Source: Actinomycetes bacterium
Lineage (GTDB): Bacteria; Actinomycetota; Thermoleophilia; BMS3ABIN01
Direction of reading: 5' to 3'
Assembly: GCA_021791195.1 (NCBI GenBank)
Contig: JAJYXB010000012.1
Span: 1-64,000, forward strand
DNA length: 64,000 bases
Of the stretch, positions 52,965 to 64,000 are shown one piece after another (position 1 is the stretch's first letter; every line of letters begins with the position of its first letter). The notes under the pieces are model-generated. The model was not told the origin of the DNA. It worked only from the letters and a program-made list of their open reading frames with translations, and made no database searches. Made by a program: the position numbers and the translations under genes.

Positions 52965-54032
52965 TCACGCTTTGCGCAACAGCAGCACCGCGAAGCGCTG
53001 GTTGCGGTCTGAGTAGATCTGTTCTGTATTCAGGCCGAAGGTGCACAGATAGGGCACCAGCTGCCTGAGGCGGAACTTGCGGCTGACCTCGGTGAGGATC
53101 AGCTCGCCCTTGCCGATGCGGAAGGCGCTGCCGGCGGGCGCGATCTCGATGCGCTGCTCGCGGCGGAAGCGCGCGAAGATCTCCACCCGGCGCCATTTGG
53201 GCGCGTAACGGGCGACATGGTCGATGGCGGTGACGTCCAGCGAGGCGCCCAGCTCCCGGTTCATCCGCGCGAACATGTTGCGGGTGAAGGCGGCGCTGAA
53301 GCCGGCGGCATCGTTGTAGGCGGCGTTGAGCGACGCCGCATCTTCATTGATGTCAACCCCCAGCAGGCAGTAGTCTCCCGGCAGCAGGTGCGAAGTGATC
53401 TTTCCCCAGAACTGCGAAGCTTCATGCGCATCGAGGTTGCCGACCGTGCTGCCCAGGAACAGCAGCATCGCCGGCGACAGCGACGGCAGCAGGGGGAAGG
53501 CGTCGTCGTAGGTTCCGTGCATCGCCTCGACCCGCACCTCCGGATAGAGCGCCGCGATCTCCTGTTCCGCCTGCTCAAGGATCGATTTGGAGATGTCGAC
53601 CGGCGTGTAGCAGGCCGAACCGTGGCGCCCGGCATAGGCTTCCAGCAGCAGCCGTGTCTTCACTGAGCTGCCGGAGCCCAGCTCCACCAGCGTCAATTCT
53701 CCCGTGCGTCCGGCGATGTCGGCCGCGGCGCTGGCGAGAATCGTCGCCTCGGTGCGCGTCAGATAATATTCCGGCTGCTCGCAGATGCGCTCGAAGATGA
53801 AGCTGCCGTACGTGTCATAAAGGAAGCGGCTGTCTAGCCGGCGGGGGATGTCGCTCAGGCCGCGCGCCACCGCCAGGGCGAACCCGGTTGATGTATCGCC
53901 GTCTCCTGACATTAATGCCAGTTCGCTGGCAGCTTGCGGATGGGCGACTGATTCCACCGGGACCACGTCTGGCCGCCAGTCCTCGACGAAAGGATGGCGG
54001 GCGGCGATTATCGGTTGTGAAGATATTTCCAT
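52965..54032 (-). CDS. egtD: EgtD-like L-histidine N-alpha-methyltransferase
   Basis: A 355-residue protein of the EgtD / Methyltransf_33 family. Residues 1-~42 are extra. The family start DIPRRLDSRFLYDTYGSFIF is followed by ICEQPEYYLTRTEATIL, the SAM motif LVELGSGSSVKTRLLLEAY, YTPVDISKSILEQAEQEI, and MLLFLGSTVGNLDAHEASQF. The product class trimethylates histidine to hercynine, the precursor of ergothioneine. Its ATG lies only 6 nt after the stop of the molybdopterin/desulfurase fusion gene, so the two are translationally coupled. No EgtB or EgtA gene is in the window. Confidence 0.9.
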   Translation of the reverse strand: MEISSQPIIAARHPFVEDWRPDVVPVESVAHPQAASELALMSGDGDTSTGFALAVARGLSDIPRRLDSRFLYDTYGSFIFERICEQPEYYLTRTEATILASAAADIAGRTGELTLVELGSGSSVKTRLLLEAYAGRHGSACYTPVDISKSILEQAEQEIAALYPEVRVEAMHGTYDDAFPLLPSLSPAMLLFLGSTVGNLDAHEASQFWGKITSHLLPGDYCLLGVDINEDAASLNAAYNDAAGFSAAFTRNMFARMNRELGASLDVTAIDHVARYAPKWRRVEIFARFRREQRIEIAPAGSAFRIGKGELILTEVSRKFRLRQLVPYLCTFGLNTEQIYSDRNQRFAVLLLRKA

Positions 54033-54038
54033 AATCTC

Positions 54039-57000
54039 TCAGCGGCAGGGAACAAAGCGGATGGCGCTCATCGATTCTGCCAGCACCTCTTTGAGCGCCG
54101 CCAGCGTCAGGTCGATGTCCTCCTCATTATTACCCTGACCGAGCGAAAACCGAACCGAGCAGTGTGCCTCCTCAGGGCTCAGGCCCAGCGCCAGCAGCGC
54201 GTGTGATGGATCTGGAGACCCGGATTTGCAGGCAGAACCCGAGGAGAGCGCTACGCCCTTGCGGTCCAGCTTTAGCACCAGCGATTCACCACGCATTCCC
54301 GGCAGGGTCATGTTGAGCGTGTTGGGCAGACGGGATGCCGGATCGCCGTTGACAAAAGCGCCGTCGACGAGCCCGACGACGCCGGCCTCAAGCCGGTCCC
54401 GCAGGTCCGCCACCCGCCGCATCTGCGGCAGGCGTTTGACCGCCAGCTCGGCGGCGCGGGCGAAGCCGGCGATGCAGGCCACGTTCTCGGTGCCGGCGCG
54501 CAGGCCGCCTTCCTGGCTGCCGCCGTTGATCAGCGGCGCCAGCCTGACGCCGCGGCGCACGAACAGCGCCCCCACGCCCTTGGGCGCGTGGATCTTGTGG
54601 CCGGAGACCGAGAGCAGGTCGACGCCGAGCTCCTCGACGTCGACGGGGATCTTTCCCAGCGCCTGCACGGCGTCGCAGTGGAAGAGGATGTCGCGCTCGT
54701 GCGCCAGCGCCGCCAGGTCAGCCACCGGCTGGATGACGCCGGTCTCGTTGTTGGCCAGCATCACCGAGACCAGGATAGTGTCGTCGCGGAACGCCTTCAG
54801 CAGCTCGGCCGGTGCGACCAGGCCGTCCCGTCCCACAGGCAGGCGGGTCACCGCAAACCCCAGCGCCTCGAGCGCGCGGCAGGACGCCAGAATCGCCGGA
54901 TGCTCGATGGCGGTGGTGATGACGTGGCCGCGGCCGTCCAGGCCTTCCTCCTGCCGGCGCGCGGCTGCCGCGAACGCCACGCCCTTGATGGCGGCGTTGT
55001 CGGCCTCGGAACCGCTGCCGGTGAAAACAACGCGGCGGGCGGTGCAGCCGATCGCCTGCGCCACGGAGCGGCGGGCGGCGTCGAGCGCCTCCCGGGCAGT
55101 GGCGCCGGTGCGGTGAATACTTGATGGATTACCATATTTGTGATTGAGGAAGGGCAGCATCGCCTCCACTGCTTCCGGGTCCAGCGGCGTGGTGGCGTTG
55201 TGGTCCAGATAGATGTAGCGGACCGGCGTGCGGCCGGTTATGTCCGCCTGGCCGCCAGCGGCCGGCAGGGCACAGCCATCCCCGGCATCCGGGGCACTCG
55301 CGGCCGCGGCAGCGGCACCCAGGGCACTTGCGTCCGCGGCAGCCAGGGCGCCGCCGGCCCGCGCGGGACCGGCCGCCGCATCCGCCGCCGCGCCGGTGAG
55401 AACGGGGGAGCCATCCGCGCTCCTGCCGGCGGCCGTGCCTGCCTGCCTGCGCGCCTGCACCGGCGTTACCTCACAAAGGAGTGATTTGTAAACCGGAAAA
55501 CCGGAGATGGGATCGTACCGCTGAAGGTCGGTGAGGTCGTTGACATTGCACCCGCGCCAGGCATCCGGTCCCACCGGGCCGCCGCCGCCCATGTTGGCGT
55601 CGATGGCGCCCGGGACGATGTTGGCAGTGACAAAGGCGCGGAAGCGCGCCCGTCCGCGCGGAGTCGCCACGAACACCTCGTCACCATCGGCGATGCCGCG
55701 CGCGTCCGCGTCCGCCGGGCTGATCGATACCAGTGGCTCTGGCGCCCGGGCAGCCAGGCCTTCCACGCCGTGGTGCTGCGAGCGGAAGTCGGTACGCACG
55801 CGCGCGCCCGAGTTGAACACCAGCGGGAACTTGCGCGCCAGCTCGGGCTGCGCCAGCGGTCCCTCCTTCGGCTCGGTGTAGACCGGCAGCGGCTCGTAGC
55901 CATGTTCCGCCAGCACGCTGGAGGCGATCTCGAACTTGCCAGAGGGCGTGTCGAACCCCGGCTGGCCATCGGCGCGCAGCAATCCTTTCTCCCACTTCCT
56001 GTACTGCATCATCCCGCCGGGCACGCTTACGGCGCCGCCGGCGGCGCGCACATCGTCCACGGAAAAGCCGGAACCGGCGAGCACATGCTCCAGCAGCTCC
56101 TCTTCCGACTGCGGATAGAGCTCGCCGTAGCCCAGCCGCCGCGCCAGTTCGCCCAGGACCAGCAGGTCGTTGCGCGCTTCGCCGACCGGTTCGAGCAGCC
56201 TTTCCCGGATGCGAAACATAGAGCCATAAGTCATGTATGAGGTGTTTTCAAAGCCGGTCGTCGTCGGCAGCACGATGTCGGCGTAGGCGGCATCGGCGGT
56301 CAGCTGACGGTCGATTGTGACCAGAAAGTCGAGGCTTGCAAGCGTCCGCCGCCAGATCTCGGGCTGCGGCCAGGCGGTGATGATCGAGCCGCCCAGCACG
56401 ATCAGCGACCTGATGGCGTATGGCCGCTGCTCGAGCACCGCCTCCGGCAGCGAGATCGCATGCGACTCGCCGCGGTACATGCTATAGACAGGGAAGCGGT
56501 CGCGGCCGAGCGCCTTTTTCACATTCGGATTGGCGATCAGGCCGCCGCGGTTGATGGGAAAAGCGCTGCCCGGCATGCGGAAGACGCGTCCGCCGGGCAC
56601 GTCCAGCTGGCCGGCGAGGGCCCAGAGGATCATCGTTGCGCGGATCGCCTGCACGCCGCTGTCGGAATATTCCAGCCCCGTGTACATTACCGGGCTCGCG
56701 CCGCGCGCGGCCGCCAGCCGCCGCGCCAGCCCCCTGACGGTCGCCGCCGGCACGCCCGTGATCTCTTCCACCGCCTCCGGCCGGAAATGCTGCGTGTAGC
56801 GCGCCAGCTCGTCGAAGCCGACCGTCCATTCGTCGACGAACTTCTCGTCGTAAAGGTCCTCCTCGATCAGCACCTGGATCATCCCCAGCGCCAGCGCGCC
56901 GTCGGTGCCGGGCCTGACCGGGATCCACTCGGCGCCGCTCTCGCGCGCGGTGCCATTGCGCCGCGGATCGATGACCACGATCTCGGCGCCGCGGTCGCGG

Positions 57001-57668
57001 GCGGCCAGTATCTGTTGATGCGCCAGCGGCGGGCAGTCGGTGGCGGGGTTAGAGCCCCAGACGACGACCAGCTCCGCCTGCTCCAGGTCAGAGTCCATGT
57101 TGATGAGCATCCCGCCCATGGTGACATGGGGCGCGATCATGGCGTAGGCAACGTAGCAGAGGGCGCCGACGCCGAAGGTGTTGGGCGAACCGAAGGGAAA
57201 GAGTACGCTGGACGCCGAAGACACCGCGGTATCGCGGGGCTGGTAGACATCGCACAGCGCCAGGTCGAAGCTGCCGCGGCCGGTGTAGATCCCGCAGGCC
57301 TCGGCACCATGCTCGCGTTTGATCTGCTTTAGCCGGGCGGCGATCGTCTCCATCGCCTCATCCCAGGAAATCTGCTCGAATTCGAACGAGCTGGGCGGGC
57401 CGGTGCGCCTGAGAGGATGCCGCAGCCGGTGCCTGGAATAAACCATCTCCGGCGCGTGCCGGCCAAGCCGGCAGATCATCCCCAGCGGATGGCCCTGCTG
57501 GGCGCGCGCCTCTGTGAGGCGGCCGTTGACGAGCGTCGCGGTGATCCAGCAGCCGGCCGGGCAGATGCCGCAGATGGTGTCGATGTCGATTTCGCCGGTC
57601 TGCTTTCCCTGCCCGCGCTCTCCCGCGGGCGCGTCGGCGGGGATCGCCGGATCGCCTGACAAAGACAT
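54039..57668 (-). CDS. Molybdopterin oxidoreductase-cysteine desulfurase fusion, probable metallopterin-dependent ergothioneine synthase
   Basis: Numbered from ATG 57668 (GGAGG upstream, spacing short at 2 nt; a TTG at 57707 would add 13 residues), the protein has 1,209 residues. Residues ~30-740 are a DMSO-reductase-family domain: Fe4S4 cysteines 33, 36, 40 and 66 (CGICPAGC), then FGSPNTFGVGALCYVAYAM with Cys171 as the probable Mo ligand. A ~70-residue Ala/Gly linker follows. Residues ~820-1209 are a NifS/IscS-type desulfurase starting YIYLDHNATTPLDPEAVEAM, with PLP Lys1025 (SGHKIHAPKG) and active Cys1147 (SSGSACKSGS). Coupled to egtD, it could insert cysteine-derived sulfur at hercynine C2. 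A thiosulfate/polysulfide-type reductase is the alternative. Confidence 0.82.
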   Translation of the reverse strand: MSLSGDPAIPADAPAGERGQGKQTGEIDIDTICGICPAGCWITATLVNGRLTEARAQQGHPLGMICRLGRHAPEMVYSRHRLRHPLRRTGPPSSFEFEQISWDEAMETIAARLKQIKREHGAEACGIYTGRGSFDLALCDVYQPRDTAVSSASSVLFPFGSPNTFGVGALCYVAYAMIAPHVTMGGMLINMDSDLEQAELVVVWGSNPATDCPPLAHQQILAARDRGAEIVVIDPRRNGTARESGAEWIPVRPGTDGALALGMIQVLIEEDLYDEKFVDEWTVGFDELARYTQHFRPEAVEEITGVPAATVRGLARRLAAARGASPVMYTGLEYSDSGVQAIRATMILWALAGQLDVPGGRVFRMPGSAFPINRGGLIANPNVKKALGRDRFPVYSMYRGESHAISLPEAVLEQRPYAIRSLIVLGGSIITAWPQPEIWRRTLASLDFLVTIDRQLTADAAYADIVLPTTTGFENTSYMTYGSMFRIRERLLEPVGEARNDLLVLGELARRLGYGELYPQSEEELLEHVLAGSGFSVDDVRAAGGAVSVPGGMMQYRKWEKGLLRADGQPGFDTPSGKFEIASSVLAEHGYEPLPVYTEPKEGPLAQPELARKFPLVFNSGARVRTDFRSQHHGVEGLAARAPEPLVSISPADADARGIADGDEVFVATPRGRARFRAFVTANIVPGAIDANMGGGGPVGPDAWRGCNVNDLTDLQRYDPISGFPVYKSLLCEVTPVQARRQAGTAAGRSADGSPVLTGAAADAAAGPARAGGALAAADASALGAAAAAASAPDAGDGCALPAAGGQADITGRTPVRYIYLDHNATTPLDPEAVEAMLPFLNHKYGNPSSIHRTGATAREALDAARRSVAQAIGCTARRVVFTGSGSEADNAAIKGVAFAAAARRQEEGLDGRGHVITTAIEHPAILASCRALEALGFAVTRLPVGRDGLVAPAELLKAFRDDTILVSVMLANNETGVIQPVADLAALAHERDILFHCDAVQALGKIPVDVEELGVDLLSVSGHKIHAPKGVGALFVRRGVRLAPLINGGSQEGGLRAGTENVACIAGFARAAELAVKRLPQMRRVADLRDRLEAGVVGLVDGAFVNGDPASRLPNTLNMTLPGMRGESLVLKLDRKGVALSSGSACKSGSPDPSHALLALGLSPEEAHCSVRFSLGQGNNEEDIDLTLAALKEVLAESMSAIRFVPCR

Positions 57669-57734
57669 AACCTCCAAAGATTCAGATGACCGGCTGGTGC
57701 GCAGCAAAATCCCGCGGCCAGTCTAAAGGAACTG

Positions 57735-57830: not shown

Positions 57831-57835
57831 GCGAA

Positions 57836-57950
57836 GAAACGCGACTGGCGTTCAGGTGGATAACCACCGGGGAGCGTTTCGGCGTCCTGGGCCTCTTGAT
57901 TTGGATGAGGCTCCGGATGCCAGCTGAAAGTGGTCGAGCGCCTGGGCCAT
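57836..57950 (+). ncRNA. ZTP (pfl) riboswitch aptamer
   Basis: The conserved core is present in order: GAAACG (57836-57841) pairing with CGTTTC (57875-57880) as P1; the invariant ACTGGCG; hairpin GGTGG-ATAA-CCACC; GGGGAGCG; and, after a ~55-nt linker, the P3 pseudoknot segment GCGCCTGGGC (57938-57947). These are the hallmarks of the ZTP/ZMP-sensing pfl motif, which switches one-carbon and purine genes on when 10-formyl-THF is short. It lies 66 nt upstream of the formate dehydrogenase start. Confidence 0.88.
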
Positions 57951-57982
57951 CCGAATGTCGATTTGGAGCGCCCGGGTTTTTT
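57941..57982 (+). terminator. Riboswitch-controlled intrinsic terminator
   Basis: CCTGGGC (57941-57947), part of the conserved aptamer P3, can pair with GCCCGGG (57970-57976), which is followed by TTTTTT. Ligand-stabilised P3 would prevent this pairing, an ON-switch layout. A second CCCGGGC at 57987-57993 can also pair with GCCCGGG, just upstream of the ribosome site. Confidence 0.75.
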
Positions 57983-58016
57983 CATTCCCGGGCCATCCTT
58001 ACCTTGAAAGGGCAAG

Positions 58017-61000
58017 ATGGCCAGACATCCCGTTTACCATCCTCTGCATCCCGATAACGGACCTCAGGTCAGCCTGTTTGTCGACGGACGTCACCTGCAG
58101 GTGCCGCACGGGATGACCATCCTGCAGGCAGCGCGGGCCAACGGCATCGAGATCCCGGCGCTATGCGACAATCCCAAGCTGATTCCGGCCGGGCGCTGCG
58201 GGCTGTGCGTGGTCGAGGTCGTGGGCGACGGCATCGTGCACGCCTGCCAGACGCCGGTCGAGGAGGGCATGGAGGTCATCAGCGAGAATCCGCAGATCGC
58301 CGACTCCCGCCGGCGGCGGCTGAACGAGTTCCTCGCCAACCACAACGCGTACTGCGAGCCGCCGTGCCATAACGCCTGCCCGGCGCGCATCGATATCCCC
58401 GGTTACCTTGGCGCCATCGCCCGGGGTGACGACGCCGAAGCGATCCGCATCGTCAAGCAGCGGCTGCCGCTGCCGCGGGTCATCGGCCGCGTCTGCCCCC
58501 GTCCCTGCGAGAGCGCCTGCCGGCGCACCCAGGTGGATGGCCAGCCGGTCGCCATCTGCCAGCTGAAGCGCTTTGCCGGCGACCGGGCAGCAGCCGAAGC
58601 CGAGGCCGCGGAGCAGGCGGCGCTCGCCGGGCTGCAGGCGCCGGCCACGGGCAAGCGGGTGGCGGTGATCGGCAGCGGCCCCTCGGGCCTGTCGGCTGCG
58701 TACTACCTGGCGCTGGACGGCCACCAGGTTACCATCTTTGAAGCAAACTCCGAGCCGGGCGGCATGATGCGCACCGGCATCCCGCCTTACCGCCTCCCCC
58801 GGGAGGTCATCGACGAAGAGGTGGCCGACATCCTCAAGCTGGGGGTGGAGCTGAAGCTCAACACCCGTCTGGGCACGGACGTCACCATCGACAGCCTGGA
58901 AGCGGACGGCTATGACTCCATATATCTGGCCGTTGGCGCCCAGCGCGGTTCGCTGGGAGGGCTGCCGGGAGCCGGCGAAGGCGCCGGAGCAGACGAAGGG
59001 ATTTACTCCGCGGTCGATTTTCTCAGGAAGAGCAACGCCGGTGAATGGGATATCCCGCTGGGACGCACGGTGGTCGTCGGCGGCGGCTTCACCGCCATGG
59101 ACGCCTGCCGCTCCGCCGTCAGGCTGGGCGCCGGCGAGGTGACGGTCGTCTACCGCCGTTCGCGCGAGGAGATGCCGGCCACCAGCGACGAGGTGGAGGC
59201 CGCCGGGCAGGAGGGGGTGACGCTCTCGCTGCTGAGCGCGCCGGTGAACGTCATCCGCGAGGGCGGGCGGGTCACGGGCGTGGTCTGCCAGAAGATGGAG
59301 CTGGGCGAGCCGGATGAGAGCGGCCGCCGCTCGCCGCGTCCGGTCGAGGGTTCGGAGTTCACTGTGTCCGCGGATACGATCATCCTTGCTATCGGCCAGG
59401 AGATCGACACCGCCGGGCTGGAAGGCCTGGTGGAGCTGGACGGCCGCGGCCGCGTCACCGCCAACCAGCTGACGCTGGCCACCAGCCGCCCGGGCGTCTT
59501 CGCCGGCGGCGACTGCCAGACCGGTCCCGCTACCGTGGTGGAGGGCATTGCCGCCGGGCGCCGCGCCGCGGTTGCCATCGGCGCCTATGTGGCGGGCGAG
59601 AGCCCGGCGGAAGCATGCAGCGCGCCGGCCGCCAGCCTGAAGAAACGCCATCCGCGGCTGTTCGAGATCGGCGCCAGGCCCAAATCGGACGCTGCCCGGC
59701 AGGCGATGCCGGAGCTGACTCCGGCCGAGCGCGGCGGTTTCGAGGAGATCGAGCTCGGCTTTGCCGAGGATGCCGCCCGGGCCGAAGCGGCCCGCTGCCT
59801 GCAGTGCACCTGCCATGCGGCATCGGCCTGCGAGCTGCAGCGCCTCTCGATCCGATACGGCGCCGGCACGACGGAATTCCGCGAGCAGGAGGGGCAGCTC
59901 GAGGTGCTGAACGGCGCTCCCATTCTCGAGCTGGACCGCAAGCGCTGCATCAAGTGCCACAAGTGCATCCGCGAATGCGACGAGGTGGTACAGTACCACG
60001 TCTATACCGTGGGCGAAAACGAGTATCCGGCCCTGCGCGCCGGCACTTATATAGATTCCGGCTGCGTCTCCTGCGGCTCGTGCGTCGAGATCTGTCCCAC
60101 GGGCGCGCTGGTGGACACGCAGCTGAAGGGCATTCATGAATGGGAAGTGGAGAAGGTCAGGACCACATGTCCGCTCTGCGGCGTCGGCTGCAACTTCGAC
60201 CTCAATGTCAGGGACGGCCGCGTACTGGGCGTTTCGTCGGCATCGGACGCGCCGGTGAACGGCCCGGCGCTCTGCGTCAAGGGCCGCTACCATTTCGACA
60301 TGATCCACAGCCCCGAGCGGCTGACTACGCCGCTGATCAGGGAAAACGGCGCCTTCCGCGAGGCCACCTGGGACGAGGCGCTCGACCTGGTGGCCGCCCG
60401 CTTCGGCGAGATCCGCGACCGTCACGGCAGCGACGCCCTGGCGGCCCTGAGCTCCGCGCGCTGCACCAACGAGGAAAACTGGTTGATGCAGAAGTTCGCC
60501 AGGGTGGTGATGGGCACCAACAACGTAGATCATTGTGCCCGCACCTGACACGCTCCCACGGTGGCCGGTCTGGCCATCTCGTTCGGGAGCGGAGCGATGA
60601 CGAACTCCATCAGCGAAGTCGGTTTTTATGACGCGCTGCTCATAATCGGTTCCAATGCCACCGAGGCGCACCCGATCATCGGCAGCAAGATGAAGCGGGC
60701 CGCCTGCCGCGGCGCGCGCGTGATCGTTGCCGATCCCCGGCAGATCGAGCTGGCGGATTACGCCGAGTTGTGGCTGCGGCTCAGGCCCGGCACCGACGCC
60801 GCCCTGGTCAACGGCCTGATCAACATCATCGTCAGCGAAGGCTGGCACGACCGGGATTTCATCGCGCAGCGCTGCGAGGGTTTTGACAAGATGTGGAAAG
60901 TTGTCAAGAACTATCCGCTGGCCCGGGTGAGCGAAATCACCGGCGTGCCCGAGGACAAGCTTTATGCCGCCGCAGAGATCTACGCCAAGACACGGCGGGC

Positions 61001-62198
61001 CGGCATCTTCTATACCCTCGGCATCACCGAGCACACCACCGGCACCGCCAACGTCATGAACCTCGCCAACCTGGCGATGGTCACCGGCCACGTCGGCGTC
61101 GAGCATGCCGGTGTCAATCCGCTACGCGGCCAGAACAACGTCCAGGGCGCCTGCGACATGGGCGCGCTGCCGAACCTGCTGCCGGGCTACCGATCGGTGG
61201 ACGAGGCCGGCAATGTCGACTACTTCGAGCGCGAGTGGGGGACCAGCCTGAGCAGCGTCTCCGGGCTGCGCATCCCGGAGATGTTCGACTCCATCCTCGG
61301 CGGCGACGTTAAGGGGATGTACATCATGGGCGAGGATCCGGTGCTTACCGACCCGGACTCCAACCATGTGCGCAAAGCGATCGACAGCCTCGATTTCCTG
61401 GTGGTGCAGGACATCTTCATGTCGGAGACGGCCAGCCTCGCCGACGTCGTCCTGCCGGCGGCGCTCTATGCGGAGAAGGACGGCACCTTCACCAATACCG
61501 AGCGCCGCGTCCAGCGGGTGCGCAGGGCGGTGGACGCTCCCGGCGAGGCCCGGGCCGACTGGGAGATCATCTGTGACCTGGCCGGCCGCATGGGCACGCC
61601 GATGGAATACGAATCACCCGAGGCCGTCTTTGAGGAGATCCGGAGCATGACGCCGGCATATGCGGGCATCACCTATGCCCGTCTGGACATCGCCGGGCTG
61701 CAATGGCCCTGCCCCGATACCGAGCATCCGGGCACGCCGTTTTTGCATCAGACCGGCTTCCCCCGCGGGAAGGGCCTGCTGCAGGGCATCGAACACCTCG
61801 AGCCGGCGGAGCTGACCAGTGAGGAATATCCGATCCTGCTGACCACCGGTCGCAGGCTCTATCATTACAATGTGTCAACCAGGAACTCGCAGCTGCTCGA
61901 TGGCCTGATGCCACATGAGCTGGCTGAAGTCAACCCCGCCGACGCCGCACGCCTCGGTCTCGCCGAGGGCGACGCGGTCCGGGTGAGCTCGCGCCGCGGG
62001 ACGGTCACATCCCGGGTGACGCTGACGGAGAAAGTGCCCGAGGGCACGGTCTTCATGACGTTCCATTTCCGGGAGACGCCAGTGAACAAGCTGACCAACT
62101 CCGTCTATGACCCGATCGCCCTGACGGCGGAATATAAGGTGTGCGCCGTCAGGATGGAGAAACTGGGCCCGGGTGAGAGCGGCGGCCCGGAAGGGTAA
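58017..62198 (+). CDS. fdhA: Selenocysteine formate dehydrogenase fused to 2Fe-2S and GltD-like flavin modules
   Basis: One 1,393-residue protein if the in-frame TGA at 60546-60548 is read as selenocysteine (Sec844, in NNVDHCART-U-HAPTVAGLA, the invariant formate dehydrogenase active site). Modules in order: 2Fe-2S (Cys50, 61, 64, 77); GltD-type cysteine region (CPARIDIPGY at ~121); FAD motif IGSGPSGLSAAYY at ~218; NAD(P) motif VVVGGGFTAMDAC; ferredoxin sites CIKCHKCIREC and CVSCGSCVEICPTGAL; FDH Fe4S4 CPLCGVGCNFD; Mo-bis-PGD domains to the end. It should couple formate/CO2 to NAD(P)H in one soluble chain. ATG 58017 follows GAAAGGGC. Expression is set by the ZTP riboswitch. Confidence 0.92.
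60551..60591 (+). promoter_or_regulatory. Bacterial SECIS element
   Basis: Starting 2 nt after the UGA, CGCTCCC (60551-60557) pairs perfectly with GGGAGCG (60585-60591), ACG with CGT, and GTGGCC (60561-60566) with GGCCAT (60572-60577), closing a GGTCT loop. The GGUCU apical loop is the same as in E. coli fdhF, where SelB binds. Confidence 0.88.
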
Positions 62199-62553
62199 GA
62201 ACTGGCAGGAGCGGCTGTCGATCCGCTCCAAGGTCTGGCTCGAACTGGACGGCGAGCCGGTGTTCAGCCGCGGCCGGGCGCTGCTTTTCCGCGCCATCGA
62301 CAGCCATGGCTCGATCAACGCGGCTGCCCGGGAGATGGGCATCTCCTACCGGCGGGCCTGGGGGTACGTCAAGGCGATGGAAGCGCGGCTGGGCGTGGCG
62401 CTGGTGGAAACCAGGACCGGCGGCGCGCAGGGGGGCGGCGCCACCCTGACGGCGGCGGCGCGGGAGCTCCTGGCGGGATTCGAGCGTCTGGAGCAGGGTG
62501 TCAACGGCTTGGTGGACAAGAGGTTCGAGGCTGAATTCAGGGGGCGGAGCTGA
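62173..62553 (+). CDS. ModE-like molybdate-responsive regulator (HTH domain only)
   Basis: A 126-residue protein from GTG 62173, overlapping the formate dehydrogenase 3' end by 26 nt. It has the LysR-type winged helix of ModE (SIRSKVWLELDGEPVFSRGR, then GSINAAAREMGISYRRAWGY, VKAMEARLG) but ends before any TOBE/Mop molybdate-binding domain. It may need a partner or sense nothing itself. A ModE-box-like palindrome lies 15 nt after its stop, upstream of modA, so it probably regulates modAB. Confidence 0.85.
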   Translation: MRAAARKGKNWQERLSIRSKVWLELDGEPVFSRGRALLFRAIDSHGSINAAAREMGISYRRAWGYVKAMEARLGVALVETRTGGAQGGGATLTAAARELLAGFERLEQGVNGLVDKRFEAEFRGRS

Positions 62554-62567
62554 TTTTTTTTCGGGGC

Positions 62568-62590
62568 CGTTATGCAAGACAGACATAACG
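62568..62590 (+). promoter_or_regulatory. ModE-box-like operator upstream of modA
   Basis: CGTTATG-CAAGACAGA-CATAACG has 7-bp arms and closely resembles the E. coli ModE site (CGTTAT ... ATAACG). It contains the upstream in-frame ATG 62572, which argues that modA starts later, at 62611. Confidence 0.7.
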
Positions 62591-62610
62591 AAACGGAAGC
62601 AGTACATGAA

Positions 62611-63438
62611 ATGAAGACGTACACGAAATATATCAGGCTATCAACCAGGCTGCCGGCGCTGCTGTTCCTGCTGGCCGGCGTGGCCGTGGCGGCCGCCGGC
62701 TGTGGCTCCGGCGCCCAGGGACAGGGAACGGGCGGGCAGCAGACGCTGACGGTCTCGGCCGCCATTAGCCTGCAGGATGCCTTCACCGAGCTGGGCAGGG
62801 CCTTCGAGGCGGCGCACCCCGGGGTCAGCGTCCAGTTCAACTTCGGCGCTTCCGGTGACCTCGAGAGCCAGATCGAGGGCGGCGCGCCGGTGGACGTCTT
62901 CGCCGCTGCCTCCACCAGGGAGACCGGCGAGCTGGCGCAAAAAGGGCTGATCGACGCCGCCGGGGTGATCCGGCCGGTGGGCAACGACCTGGTGCTGACG
63001 GTGCCGTCCGGCGCCACGGCGCAGTTCGGCGCGTTTGCCGATCTGGCCCGGGGCGCCTCCGGCAAGATCGCCATCGGCAATCCCGCCACGGTGCCGGCGG
63101 GCCGCTACGCGCGCGATACGCTGACGCATTTCGGCCTCTGGGATGCGCTCAAGCCCCGGCTGGTCTACGGCGAGAGCGTGCGCCAGGTGCTGGACTATGT
63201 CGCCCGCGGCGAGGTTGACGCGGGCCTGGTCTATGCTACCGATGCCCGCGCCCGCGCCTCGGAAGTGAGGGTGGCGCTTTCGGCGCCGGCTGACAGCCAC
63301 GCGCCGGTGACCTATCCGATGGCGGTGGTGTCCGGCAGCGCGAACCGCGCCCTGGCGGGGCAGTTCCTCGCTTTCCTGGGCTCGGCCGCCGCCCGCCCGG
63401 TCTTCGAGAAATACGGTTTCAGGTGGCTCCTTGGATAG
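62611..63438 (+). CDS. modA: Molybdate ABC transporter substrate-binding lipoprotein
   Basis: A 275-residue protein from ATG 62611. The signal peptide (LPALLFLLAGVAVAAAGC) ends in a lipobox with Cys, so it is membrane-tethered. The ModA fold is recognised by LTVSAAISLQDAFTELGRAF, VQFNFGASGDLESQIEGGAP, VDVFAAAS, the LVYGESVRQVLDYVARGEVD hinge and DAGLVYATDA. It captures molybdate (or tungstate) for the enzymes encoded next to it. Likely repressed through the ModE box when molybdate is sufficient. Confidence 0.93.
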   Translation: MKTYTKYIRLSTRLPALLFLLAGVAVAAAGCGSGAQGQGTGGQQTLTVSAAISLQDAFTELGRAFEAAHPGVSVQFNFGASGDLESQIEGGAPVDVFAAASTRETGELAQKGLIDAAGVIRPVGNDLVLTVPSGATAQFGAFADLARGASGKIAIGNPATVPAGRYARDTLTHFGLWDALKPRLVYGESVRQVLDYVARGEVDAGLVYATDARARASEVRVALSAPADSHAPVTYPMAVVSGSANRALAGQFLAFLGSAAARPVFEKYGFRWLLG

Positions 63439-64000
63439 CTCGGCGCTTCTTGCCCTGCGGCTGTCGCTGCAGGTGGCGCTGACCGCCACGATCATGGTGG
63501 TGCCGGCTGGCATCTTCTTTGCCTGCGTGCTGGCGCGGGGGCGCTTTCGCGGCCGGGACCTGCTGGACGTAGCCCTCACCCTGCCGCTGGTGCTGCCGCC
63601 GACGGTCACCGGCTATTACCTGGTGGTGCTTTTCGGCCGCAACGGCCCCATCGGCAGCCGGGTCTATGCCCTGACGGGCTGGTCGATCATGTTCACCTGG
63701 GAGGCGGCGGTGCTGGCCTCTTTCGTGGTGGCGCTGCCGCTGATGGTCAAGACCGCCCGGGCCGCATTCGAGTCAGTCGAGCCCCAGTTTGTCGATGCCT
63801 CGCGCACGCTCGGCCACTCCGAGGCCAGCACCTTCCTGAAAGTGGTGCTGCCGCTGTCCCGCCGGGGCGTGATCGCCGGCGCCTCGCTGGCCTTTGCGCG
63901 GGCGCTGGGCGAGTTTGGCGCGACGCTGATGCTGGCGGGCAACATCCCCGGCCGGACCAGCACGGCGCCGCTGGCGATCTACAGCTATGCCGGCAGCGGC
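63431..64000 (+). CDS. modB: Molybdate ABC transporter permease (partial at window edge)
   Basis: TTG 63431 overlaps the modA stop by 8 nt and follows AGGTGGC; 190 residues are visible before the window ends. Hydrophobic helices (LSLQVALTATIMVVPAGIFF, EAAVLASFVVALPLMVKTAR) and the permease loop EASTFLKVVLPLSRRGVIAG, followed by ALGEFGATLMLAGN, are typical of ModB. The ATPase gene modC presumably lies beyond the window. Confidence 0.92.
   Translation, partial: MDSSALLALRLSLQVALTATIMVVPAGIFFACVLARGRFRGRDLLDVALTLPLVLPPTVTGYYLVVLFGRNGPIGSRVYALTGWSIMFTWEAAVLASFVVALPLMVKTARAAFESVEPQFVDASRTLGHSEASTFLKVVLPLSRRGVIAGASLAFARALGEFGATLMLAGNIPGRTSTAPLAIYSYAGSG

What the first reader, a model, noticed from the sequence alone, without database searches (positions are those of the whole stretch)
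57836..57982. ZTP riboswitch with terminator controlling a formate dehydrogenase
All conserved ZTP aptamer parts are present, and the conserved CCTGGGC of P3 can pair alternatively into a terminator stem followed by TTTTTT, giving a clear ON switch. ZTP riboswitches usually control purine and folate genes; one upstream of a selenocysteine formate dehydrogenase links folate one-carbon starvation to formate/CO2 interconversion. This suggests the enzyme may make formate for formyl-THF.
Basis: partly seen in the sequence, partly recalled or inferred. Interest (0 to 1): 0.82.

Follow-up and report, generated by a model that had tools for sequence, protein, structure and literature searches.

The report
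ZTP riboswitch controlling carbon-dioxide-to-formate enzyme
In front of a formate dehydrogenase gene lies a standard RNA sensor for one-carbon (folate) shortage, built to switch the gene on; in this lineage of carbon-fixing bacteria it seems to have become the sensor for making formate from carbon dioxide.

Summary
Window 57831-57954 (+) matches Rfam RF01750 (ZTP/ZMP riboswitch) at 50.1 bits against a cut-off of 39. It is the only such RNA found in its genome. A strong terminator (57940-57982) reuses the aptamer's P3/pseudoknot strand: the usual ZMP-on architecture. The operon is a selenocysteine formate dehydrogenase (FDH), a ModE-like regulator, modA and modB.

In the same family, 13 of 13 over-cut-off ZTP RNAs sit before an orthologous FDH. 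Across 399 class genomes, 141 ZTP RNAs precede serC 69, glyA 48, FDH 13, purH 5 and tungstate-binding tupA 1; 5 are unassigned. Only FDH and tupA leaders carry the overlapping terminator: 14 of 14, against 0 of 127 others. The family has acetyl-CoA synthase and mostly formate-THF ligase but no pyruvate formate-lyase, so FDH is the obvious formate source: the first step of the Wood-Ljungdahl methyl branch. A second class has a ZTP RNA inside a Wood-Ljungdahl operon, directly before FDH.

The riboswitch class and mechanism are known. The FDH / Mo-W-uptake target was not found in the papers searched. Ligand binding and reaction direction are untested.

The parts
57833..57883 (+). ZTP aptamer P1 (57833-57842 with 57874-57883) enclosing P2 (57856-57859 with 57864-57867)
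   Evidence: RF01750 covariance model alignment; two of ten P1 pairs flagged non-standard
57881..57921 (+). linker hairpin between P1/P2 and P3; length varies between relatives
   Evidence: fold of 57831-57982; length variation in alignment A1
57847..57850 (+). J1/2 pseudoknot strand GGCG, partner of CGCC 57939-57942
   Evidence: sequence; conserved GGC columns; pseudoknot role from PMC7337938 passages
57931..57949 (+). P3 (UGGUC 57931-57935 with GGCCA 57945-57949) and its loop with the conserved CGCCUGGG
   Evidence: RF01750 alignment
57940..57982 (+). intrinsic terminator: outer stem 57940-57947 with 57970-57977, inner stem 57950-57956 with 57961-57967, U tract 57977-57982; mutually exclusive with P3 and pseudoknot
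   Evidence: folds; found in 13 of 13 FDH leaders; helix counts
58006..58012 (+). probable Shine-Dalgarno GAAAGGG
   Evidence: sequence; 4 bases before the ATG at 58017; inference
58017..62198 (+). formate dehydrogenase, 1393 aa: [2Fe-2S] + GltD/NfnB-like FAD/NAD(P) module + Fe-S + molybdopterin catalytic domain; Sec codon TGA at 60546-60548
60551..60591 (+). hairpin just after the Sec UGA, candidate bSECIS
   Evidence: fold of 60546-60595, z = -2.58, 4 of 200 shuffles as good
62173..62553 (+). ModE-like DNA-binding domain protein, overlaps the end of FDH
   Evidence: TIGR00637 87.9 bits (cut-off 98.5)
62572..63438 (+). modA, molybdate-binding protein
   Evidence: TIGR01256 196.6 bits over cut-off 62.5
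63431..64000 (+). modB, molybdate permease (runs off the window)
   Evidence: TIGR02141 229 bits over cut-off 182.6

Best explanation
A bona fide ZTP/ZMP riboswitch acting as a transcriptional ON switch for an FDH-modE-modA-modB operon in an anaerobic, Wood-Ljungdahl-type lineage of Actinomycetota. When 10-formyl-THF runs short, PurH stalls and ZMP (AICAR) rises. ZMP locks pseudoknot and P3, so the terminator cannot form and RNA polymerase reads on into FDH. The enzyme then reduces CO2 to formate, which formate-THF ligase turns into 10-formyl-THF for purines and for the Wood-Ljungdahl methyl branch; the co-transcribed genes supply the metal. Shown here: aptamer, competing terminator (by sequence and folding), operon order, conservation across the family, genome gene content. 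Inferred: ZMP binding, direction of catalysis, physiological signal, anaerobic growth.
For: Aptamer. Terminator overlapping the aptamer in 13 of 13 FDH leaders and 0 of 127 non-FDH, non-tupA ZTP leaders of the class; helix 94.2% of cells paired against at most 61.5% when slid. All 13 over-cut-off ZTP RNAs of the family precede the FDH orthologue; the 6 family genomes without an over-cut-off ZTP lack that orthologue. Fhs 15 of 19, PurH 19 of 19, PFL 0 of 19, AcsB 20 of 22. One Fdh-alpha over cut-off in 11 of the 13 ZTP genomes. A genus member (G005, 92% complete) lacks FDH over cut-off, Fhs, AcsB and ZTP together. Another lineage, G401: ZTP between an AcsE-type methyltransferase and FDH in a CODH/ACS operon. 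ZTP before tungstate-uptake-like genes in G007 (34.4 bits, below cut-off) and G650. Best solved-structure match of the FDH by E-value is the FdhF of a hydrogen-dependent CO2 reductase (7qv7).
Against: No experiment. The terminator helix shows no two-sided compensatory changes (0 pairs); its 5' arm is fixed by the aptamer. SHMT is present in 21 of 22 genomes, so serine can also supply C1 units. Fhs was not found in two ZTP genomes (G015 90% and G018 78% complete), nor AcsB in G018. FDH orthologues of G067, G062 and G027 (67-69% identical) have no ZTP hit, so the enzyme does not need it. G401 lacks an evident terminator. FDHs are reversible, and the pyridine-nucleotide module does not fix the direction. 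folD, fchA and metF were not searched.
Confidence: 0.77

Rival explanations
1. ZTP ON switch as above, but the FDH runs in the oxidising direction: on C1/purine stress the cell burns formate for NAD(P)H or ferredoxin, or removes excess formate released by deformylation.
For: FDHs are reversible; the N-terminal module is GltD/NfnB-like, which couples to pyridine nucleotides in either direction.
Against: ZMP rises when 10-formyl-THF is short; destroying formate then would worsen the shortage in cells that carry Fhs and no PFL. In other ZTP regulons the targets add or use C1 units for purines (serC, glyA, purH here; pfl, fhs, folD in PMC2864571). In G401 the FDH lies in a CODH/ACS operon.
Confidence: 0.13
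2. The RNA is a ZTP-class variant whose ligand or affinity has changed in the FDH lineage, for example to follow a Wood-Ljungdahl intermediate rather than ZMP.
For: 8 of 13 FDH aptamers carry TC or AC in place of CG just after P2 (window positions 57868-57869); none of the other aptamers that fit the search pattern do; the G401 aptamer has TC too.
Against: The window's own aptamer has the ordinary CG, and most core columns are invariant in alignment A1; scores are over cut-off. 27 of 141 aptamers did not fit the pattern.
Confidence: 0.07
3. A decayed or chance ZTP-like stretch without regulatory function.
For: Two P1 pairs are non-standard.
Against: Kept with terminator before the same gene in 13 genomes; E 2.7e-7 in the genome.
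Confidence: 0.02

Closest known systems
ZTP (pfl motif, RF01750) riboswitches before pfl, fhs, purH, glyA, folD (PMC2864571, passages)
   Same: Aptamer family, overlapping terminator, ON logic, C1/formyl-THF supply
   Different: Target is a selenocysteine formate dehydrogenase plus Mo/W uptake; formate would come from CO2, not from pyruvate
ZMP riboswitch of Thermosinus carboxydivorans (PMC7337938, passages)
   Same: Pseudoknot J1/2-L3 and P3 compete with a terminator that starts inside the aptamer
   Different: Linker hairpin of about 40 bases here; its length relative to T. carboxydivorans and that switch's own gene were not compared
Moco RNA motif in acetogens (PMC5651825, PMC6239172, passages)
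   Same: RNA elements tied to molybdopterin/FDH function in Wood-Ljungdahl bacteria
   Different: Unrelated RNA; said to sense Mo/W cofactor, not C1 status; no Moco match in the window
HDCR FdhF and other FDHs of solved structure (PDB 7qv7, 6tg9)
   Same: Catalytic domain of the same family
   Different: Here fused with a [2Fe-2S] + GltD/NfnB-like module in one 1393-residue chain

Membership tests
ZTP/ZMP riboswitch (RF01750) | Covariance-model score over the curated cut-off | tested here: met
   50.1 bits vs 39
ZTP/ZMP riboswitch (RF01750) | P1, P2, P3 and conserved core including CGCCUGGG in L3 | tested here: met
   full-length alignment; invariant core columns
ZTP/ZMP riboswitch (RF01750) | J1/2-L3 pseudoknot | tested here: met
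   complementary GGCG/CGCC by sequence; the pairing itself was not probed
ZTP/ZMP riboswitch (RF01750) | Binds ZMP/ZTP | not testable with these tools
   needs in-line probing or ITC
Transcriptional ON-type ZTP switch | Terminator that reuses the aptamer's 3' strand, then U tract | tested here: met
Selenocysteine formate dehydrogenase | Fdh-alpha family score and in-frame UGA at the active-site position | tested here: met
   TIGR01591 842.6 bits; UGA conserved
Selenocysteine formate dehydrogenase | Sec decoding: tRNA-Sec in the genome, SECIS after UGA | tested here: met
   tRNA-Sec 70.6 bits in G000; hairpin after UGA z -2.58; selA/selB not searched
Wood-Ljungdahl pathway organism | CODH/ACS (AcsB) and formate-THF ligase | tested here: met
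   own genome has both
Wood-Ljungdahl pathway organism | FolD, FchA, MetF and autotrophic growth | not tested
   searches spent elsewhere; growth is not testable here

The most novel reading that the evidence does not exclude
In Wood-Ljungdahl Actinomycetota the purine alarmone ZMP directly governs the entry of CO2 into the one-carbon pool: a ZTP switch on formate dehydrogenase and on Mo/W uptake, placed before FDH in at least two lineages (the family here, and an acs operon in G401) and replacing the serC/glyA targets usual in the class. That would make ZMP a C1-deficit signal gating carbon fixation.
Probability: 0.5. Interest if true: 0.66.

Novelty: new member of a known kind. Interest (0 to 1): 0.52.

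Why it matters
ZTP switches are mostly known from purine and folate genes. Here the same sensor sits on the enzyme that would draw CO2 into the one-carbon pool and on its metal supply, and in this family it stands in place of the serine/glycine targets seen elsewhere in the class. It predicts that antifolate stress induces formate dehydrogenase in these uncultured bacteria, and it gives an RNA-level clue to the direction in which an FDH works, which sequence alone rarely gives.

Tried and rejected
Consensus terminator and promoter scan: it did not list the terminator (loop limit) and found no promoter. A TTGC/TATA-like pair recurs upstream in several leaders, too weak to list as a part.

A second, translational layer was considered: a hairpin over the start codon (57986-58025, z -1.87). 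By eye on the leaders it is not kept in relatives; rejected as a general feature.

A degraded ZTP before the non-ZTP FDHs (L112, L114, L115, L117-L123) was sought with model R1: nothing better than E 0.053.

ZTP in more distant FDH relatives: R1 over the window and 78 loci hit only the window and 7 loci, all family FDH leaders. L035, a family FDH, is cut at the gene start, so its leader could not be tested.

Compensatory changes in the terminator: none.

Literature: Kim et al. 2015, the paper that identified the ligand (recalled), is not held, so its gene lists could not be checked. Searches combining ZTP/ZMP riboswitch with formate dehydrogenase, formate, Wood-Ljungdahl or acetogen gave no paper describing this target (judged from titles and abstract starts plus the passages named in the full report); the listing of 'ZTP riboswitch' papers (66 papers, 30 listed) was read as titles and abstract starts only.

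mis-picked the terminator of L016 (regex); one search corrected it.

Full report
OBSERVATION. cmscan finds RF01750 at 57831-57954 (+), full length, 50.1 bits against a gathering score of 39; the same search over the held genome (2.15 Mb, 97.5% complete) finds no other. In window coordinates P1 is 57833-57842/57874-57883, P2 57856-57859/57864-57867, P3 57931-57935/57945-57949, and the pseudoknot strands are 57847-57850 and 57939-57942 (mapped from the alignment onto). The terminator hairpin 57940-57977 folds at -23.8 kcal/mol, z -3.98, wins in the minimum-energy fold of the whole leader (that program cannot model the pseudoknot), and is followed by six U. It uses the pseudoknot strand and part of the P3 3' arm, so ligand-bound aptamer and terminator exclude each other. 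This is the mechanism described for the T. carboxydivorans ZMP switch (PMC7337938, passages read).

TARGET. ATG 58017 starts a 1393-residue formate dehydrogenase: TIGR01591 842.6 bits over its cut-off; Pfam Fer2_4, Fer4_20, Pyr_redox_2, Molybdopterin and Molydop_binding. The UGA at 60546-60548 lies at the active-site position and is kept in orthologues. The genome has a tRNA-Sec match of 70.6 bits, and a hairpin follows the UGA. The next genes are ModE-like, modA and modB. The best solved-structure match by E-value is the FdhF of a hydrogen-dependent CO2 reductase (7qv7), over the catalytic domain.

CONSERVATION IN THE FAMILY. Of 19 genomes in the same family (own included), 14 have a ZTP match, 13 of them over the cut-off. 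tblastn places the window's FDH directly downstream in all 13. The 14th (G007, 34.4 bits, below cut-off) precedes a tupA-like tungstate-binding gene and a permease (NF041772 scores below its own cut-off). The five family genomes without any ZTP match lack the close FDH orthologue: G006, G008 and G009 have a 49-50% version, as does G007; G005 and the 69%-complete G012 have no FDH over the cut-off. FDH relatives from named contigs (78 loci) were scanned with a model built from 22 aptamers: only 7 loci besides the window match, all from this lineage; their records are MAGs labelled Actinomycetes bacterium or Thermoleophilia bacterium.

CLASS AND PHYLUM BACKGROUND. In 399 genomes of the class 101 have a match. 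I took the downstream DNA of all 141 listed hits (loci; stretches) and classed them by tblastn against six reference proteins: SerC 69, GlyA 48, FDH 13, PurH 5, TupA 1, unassigned 5, of which three look like serA by eye. The overlapping terminator is present in 13 of 13 FDH and 1 of 1 TupA leaders and in 0 of 127 others. So in this family the target and the expression platform have both changed. In 396 genomes drawn from the phylum 43 have a match. The 33 hits outside the class gave GlyA 18, PurH 7, FDH 1, TupA 1, unassigned 6. The FDH case (G401) lies between an AcsE-type methyltransferase and a 1389-residue FDH with no in-frame stop, in an operon that also holds acetyl-CoA synthase and corrinoid protein genes; RF01750 there scores 50.8 bits, and no poly-T terminator is evident. 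The TupA case (G650, 57.4 bits) reads ZTP, terminator, ModE-like protein, tupA-like, permease, ATPase.

METABOLIC CONTEXT. Fhs 15 of 19, PurH 19 of 19, PFL 0 of 19, AcsB 20 of 22 (19 family plus G067, G062, G027), SHMT 21 of 22. Fdh-alpha over cut-off is single in 11 of the 13 ZTP genomes; G011 has two and G017's gene is split below cut-off. In G006 and G008 the other FDH type lies on one contig within about 30 kb of acsB and fhs, and in G009 near acsB; there ZTP is absent. In the ZTP genomes FDH is on another contig than acsB where both were found, which says little where assemblies are fragmented but holds for G010 and G013, with contigs of over 170 kb. Thus where FDH is outside the Wood-Ljungdahl cluster in this family it has its own ZTP switch. 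That is a correlation within one family, not a test.

OPERON PARTNERS. modA/modB (mostly with modE) follow FDH in G000, G001, G002, G004, G011, G013 and G015. G016 and G018 instead have, by sequence and Pfam, a molybdopterin-binding-domain protein, followed in G018 by FmdE (G016 by sequence only). Metal or cofactor genes are thus a repeated part of the transcript.

EVOLUTION. A tree of 27 FDHs puts the no-ZTP orthologues of G067, G062 and G027 inside the ZTP clade (support 93/98), so gain followed by loss, or transfer without the leader, is likely; the forks there are not all firm. 8 of 13 FDH aptamers, and that of G401, have TC or AC instead of CG after P2, seen in none of the other aptamers that fit the pattern; cause unknown.

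LITERATURE. [quoted passage not shown] FDH is not in the passages read. Acetogen transcriptome papers (PMC5651825, PMC12456013, PMC6239172, passages) mention cobalamin, Moco and other RNAs; 'ZMP' has no occurrence in their main text. PMC6143707 (passages) uses ZMP for a protease and is irrelevant. No paper on this target turned up. Kim et al. 2015 was not available, so novelty of the target is provisional.

VERDICT. The RNA is an ordinary member of a known class, well placed and very probably functional. The interesting part is the target: formate from CO2, with its metal supply, as the C1-rescue gene of a Wood-Ljungdahl lineage.

Noticed in passing
window 54039-57707 (-) and 52965-54032 (-): Divergent from the riboswitch: a molybdopterin enzyme fused to a NifS-type cysteine desulfurase, next to EgtD (TIGR03438 over cut-off). 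This matches the metallopterin-dependent ergothioneine synthase described from Caldithrix abyssi (PMC9516567, abstract and passages).
   Followed up: partly
window 57944-57952 and 57990-57998; 57991-58022: GGGCCATCC occurs twice, once in the aptamer/terminator strand and once before the start codon, where it pairs with GATGGCC over the ATG. By eye not kept in relatives.
   Followed up: partly
L022:1501-1596 (-) and L329:7087-7172 (-): ZTP-type RNAs with terminators before tungstate-transport-like genes in two distant genomes (G007, below cut-off; G650, 57.4 bits): tungstate uptake may be a separate ZTP target.
   Followed up: partly
L328:6382-6474 (-): ZTP riboswitch inside a CODH/ACS operon, between an acsE-type gene and an FDH without in-frame stop, in another class of the phylum.
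   Followed up: yes
window positions 57868-57869 in relatives (L004, L006, L007, L011, L014, L015, L017, L020, L308): Two bases after P2 are TC or AC instead of CG in 8 of 13 FDH aptamers and in G401; possible tuning or shared origin.
   Followed up: partly
genome G005 (same genus): Lacks FDH over cut-off, Fhs, AcsB and ZTP together (92% complete): the Wood-Ljungdahl set with its switch seems lost in one genus member.
   Followed up: no
window 57770-57752 (-): Terminator-like hairpin on the minus strand in the leader of the ergothioneine synthase gene (0.6 expected by chance).
   Followed up: no
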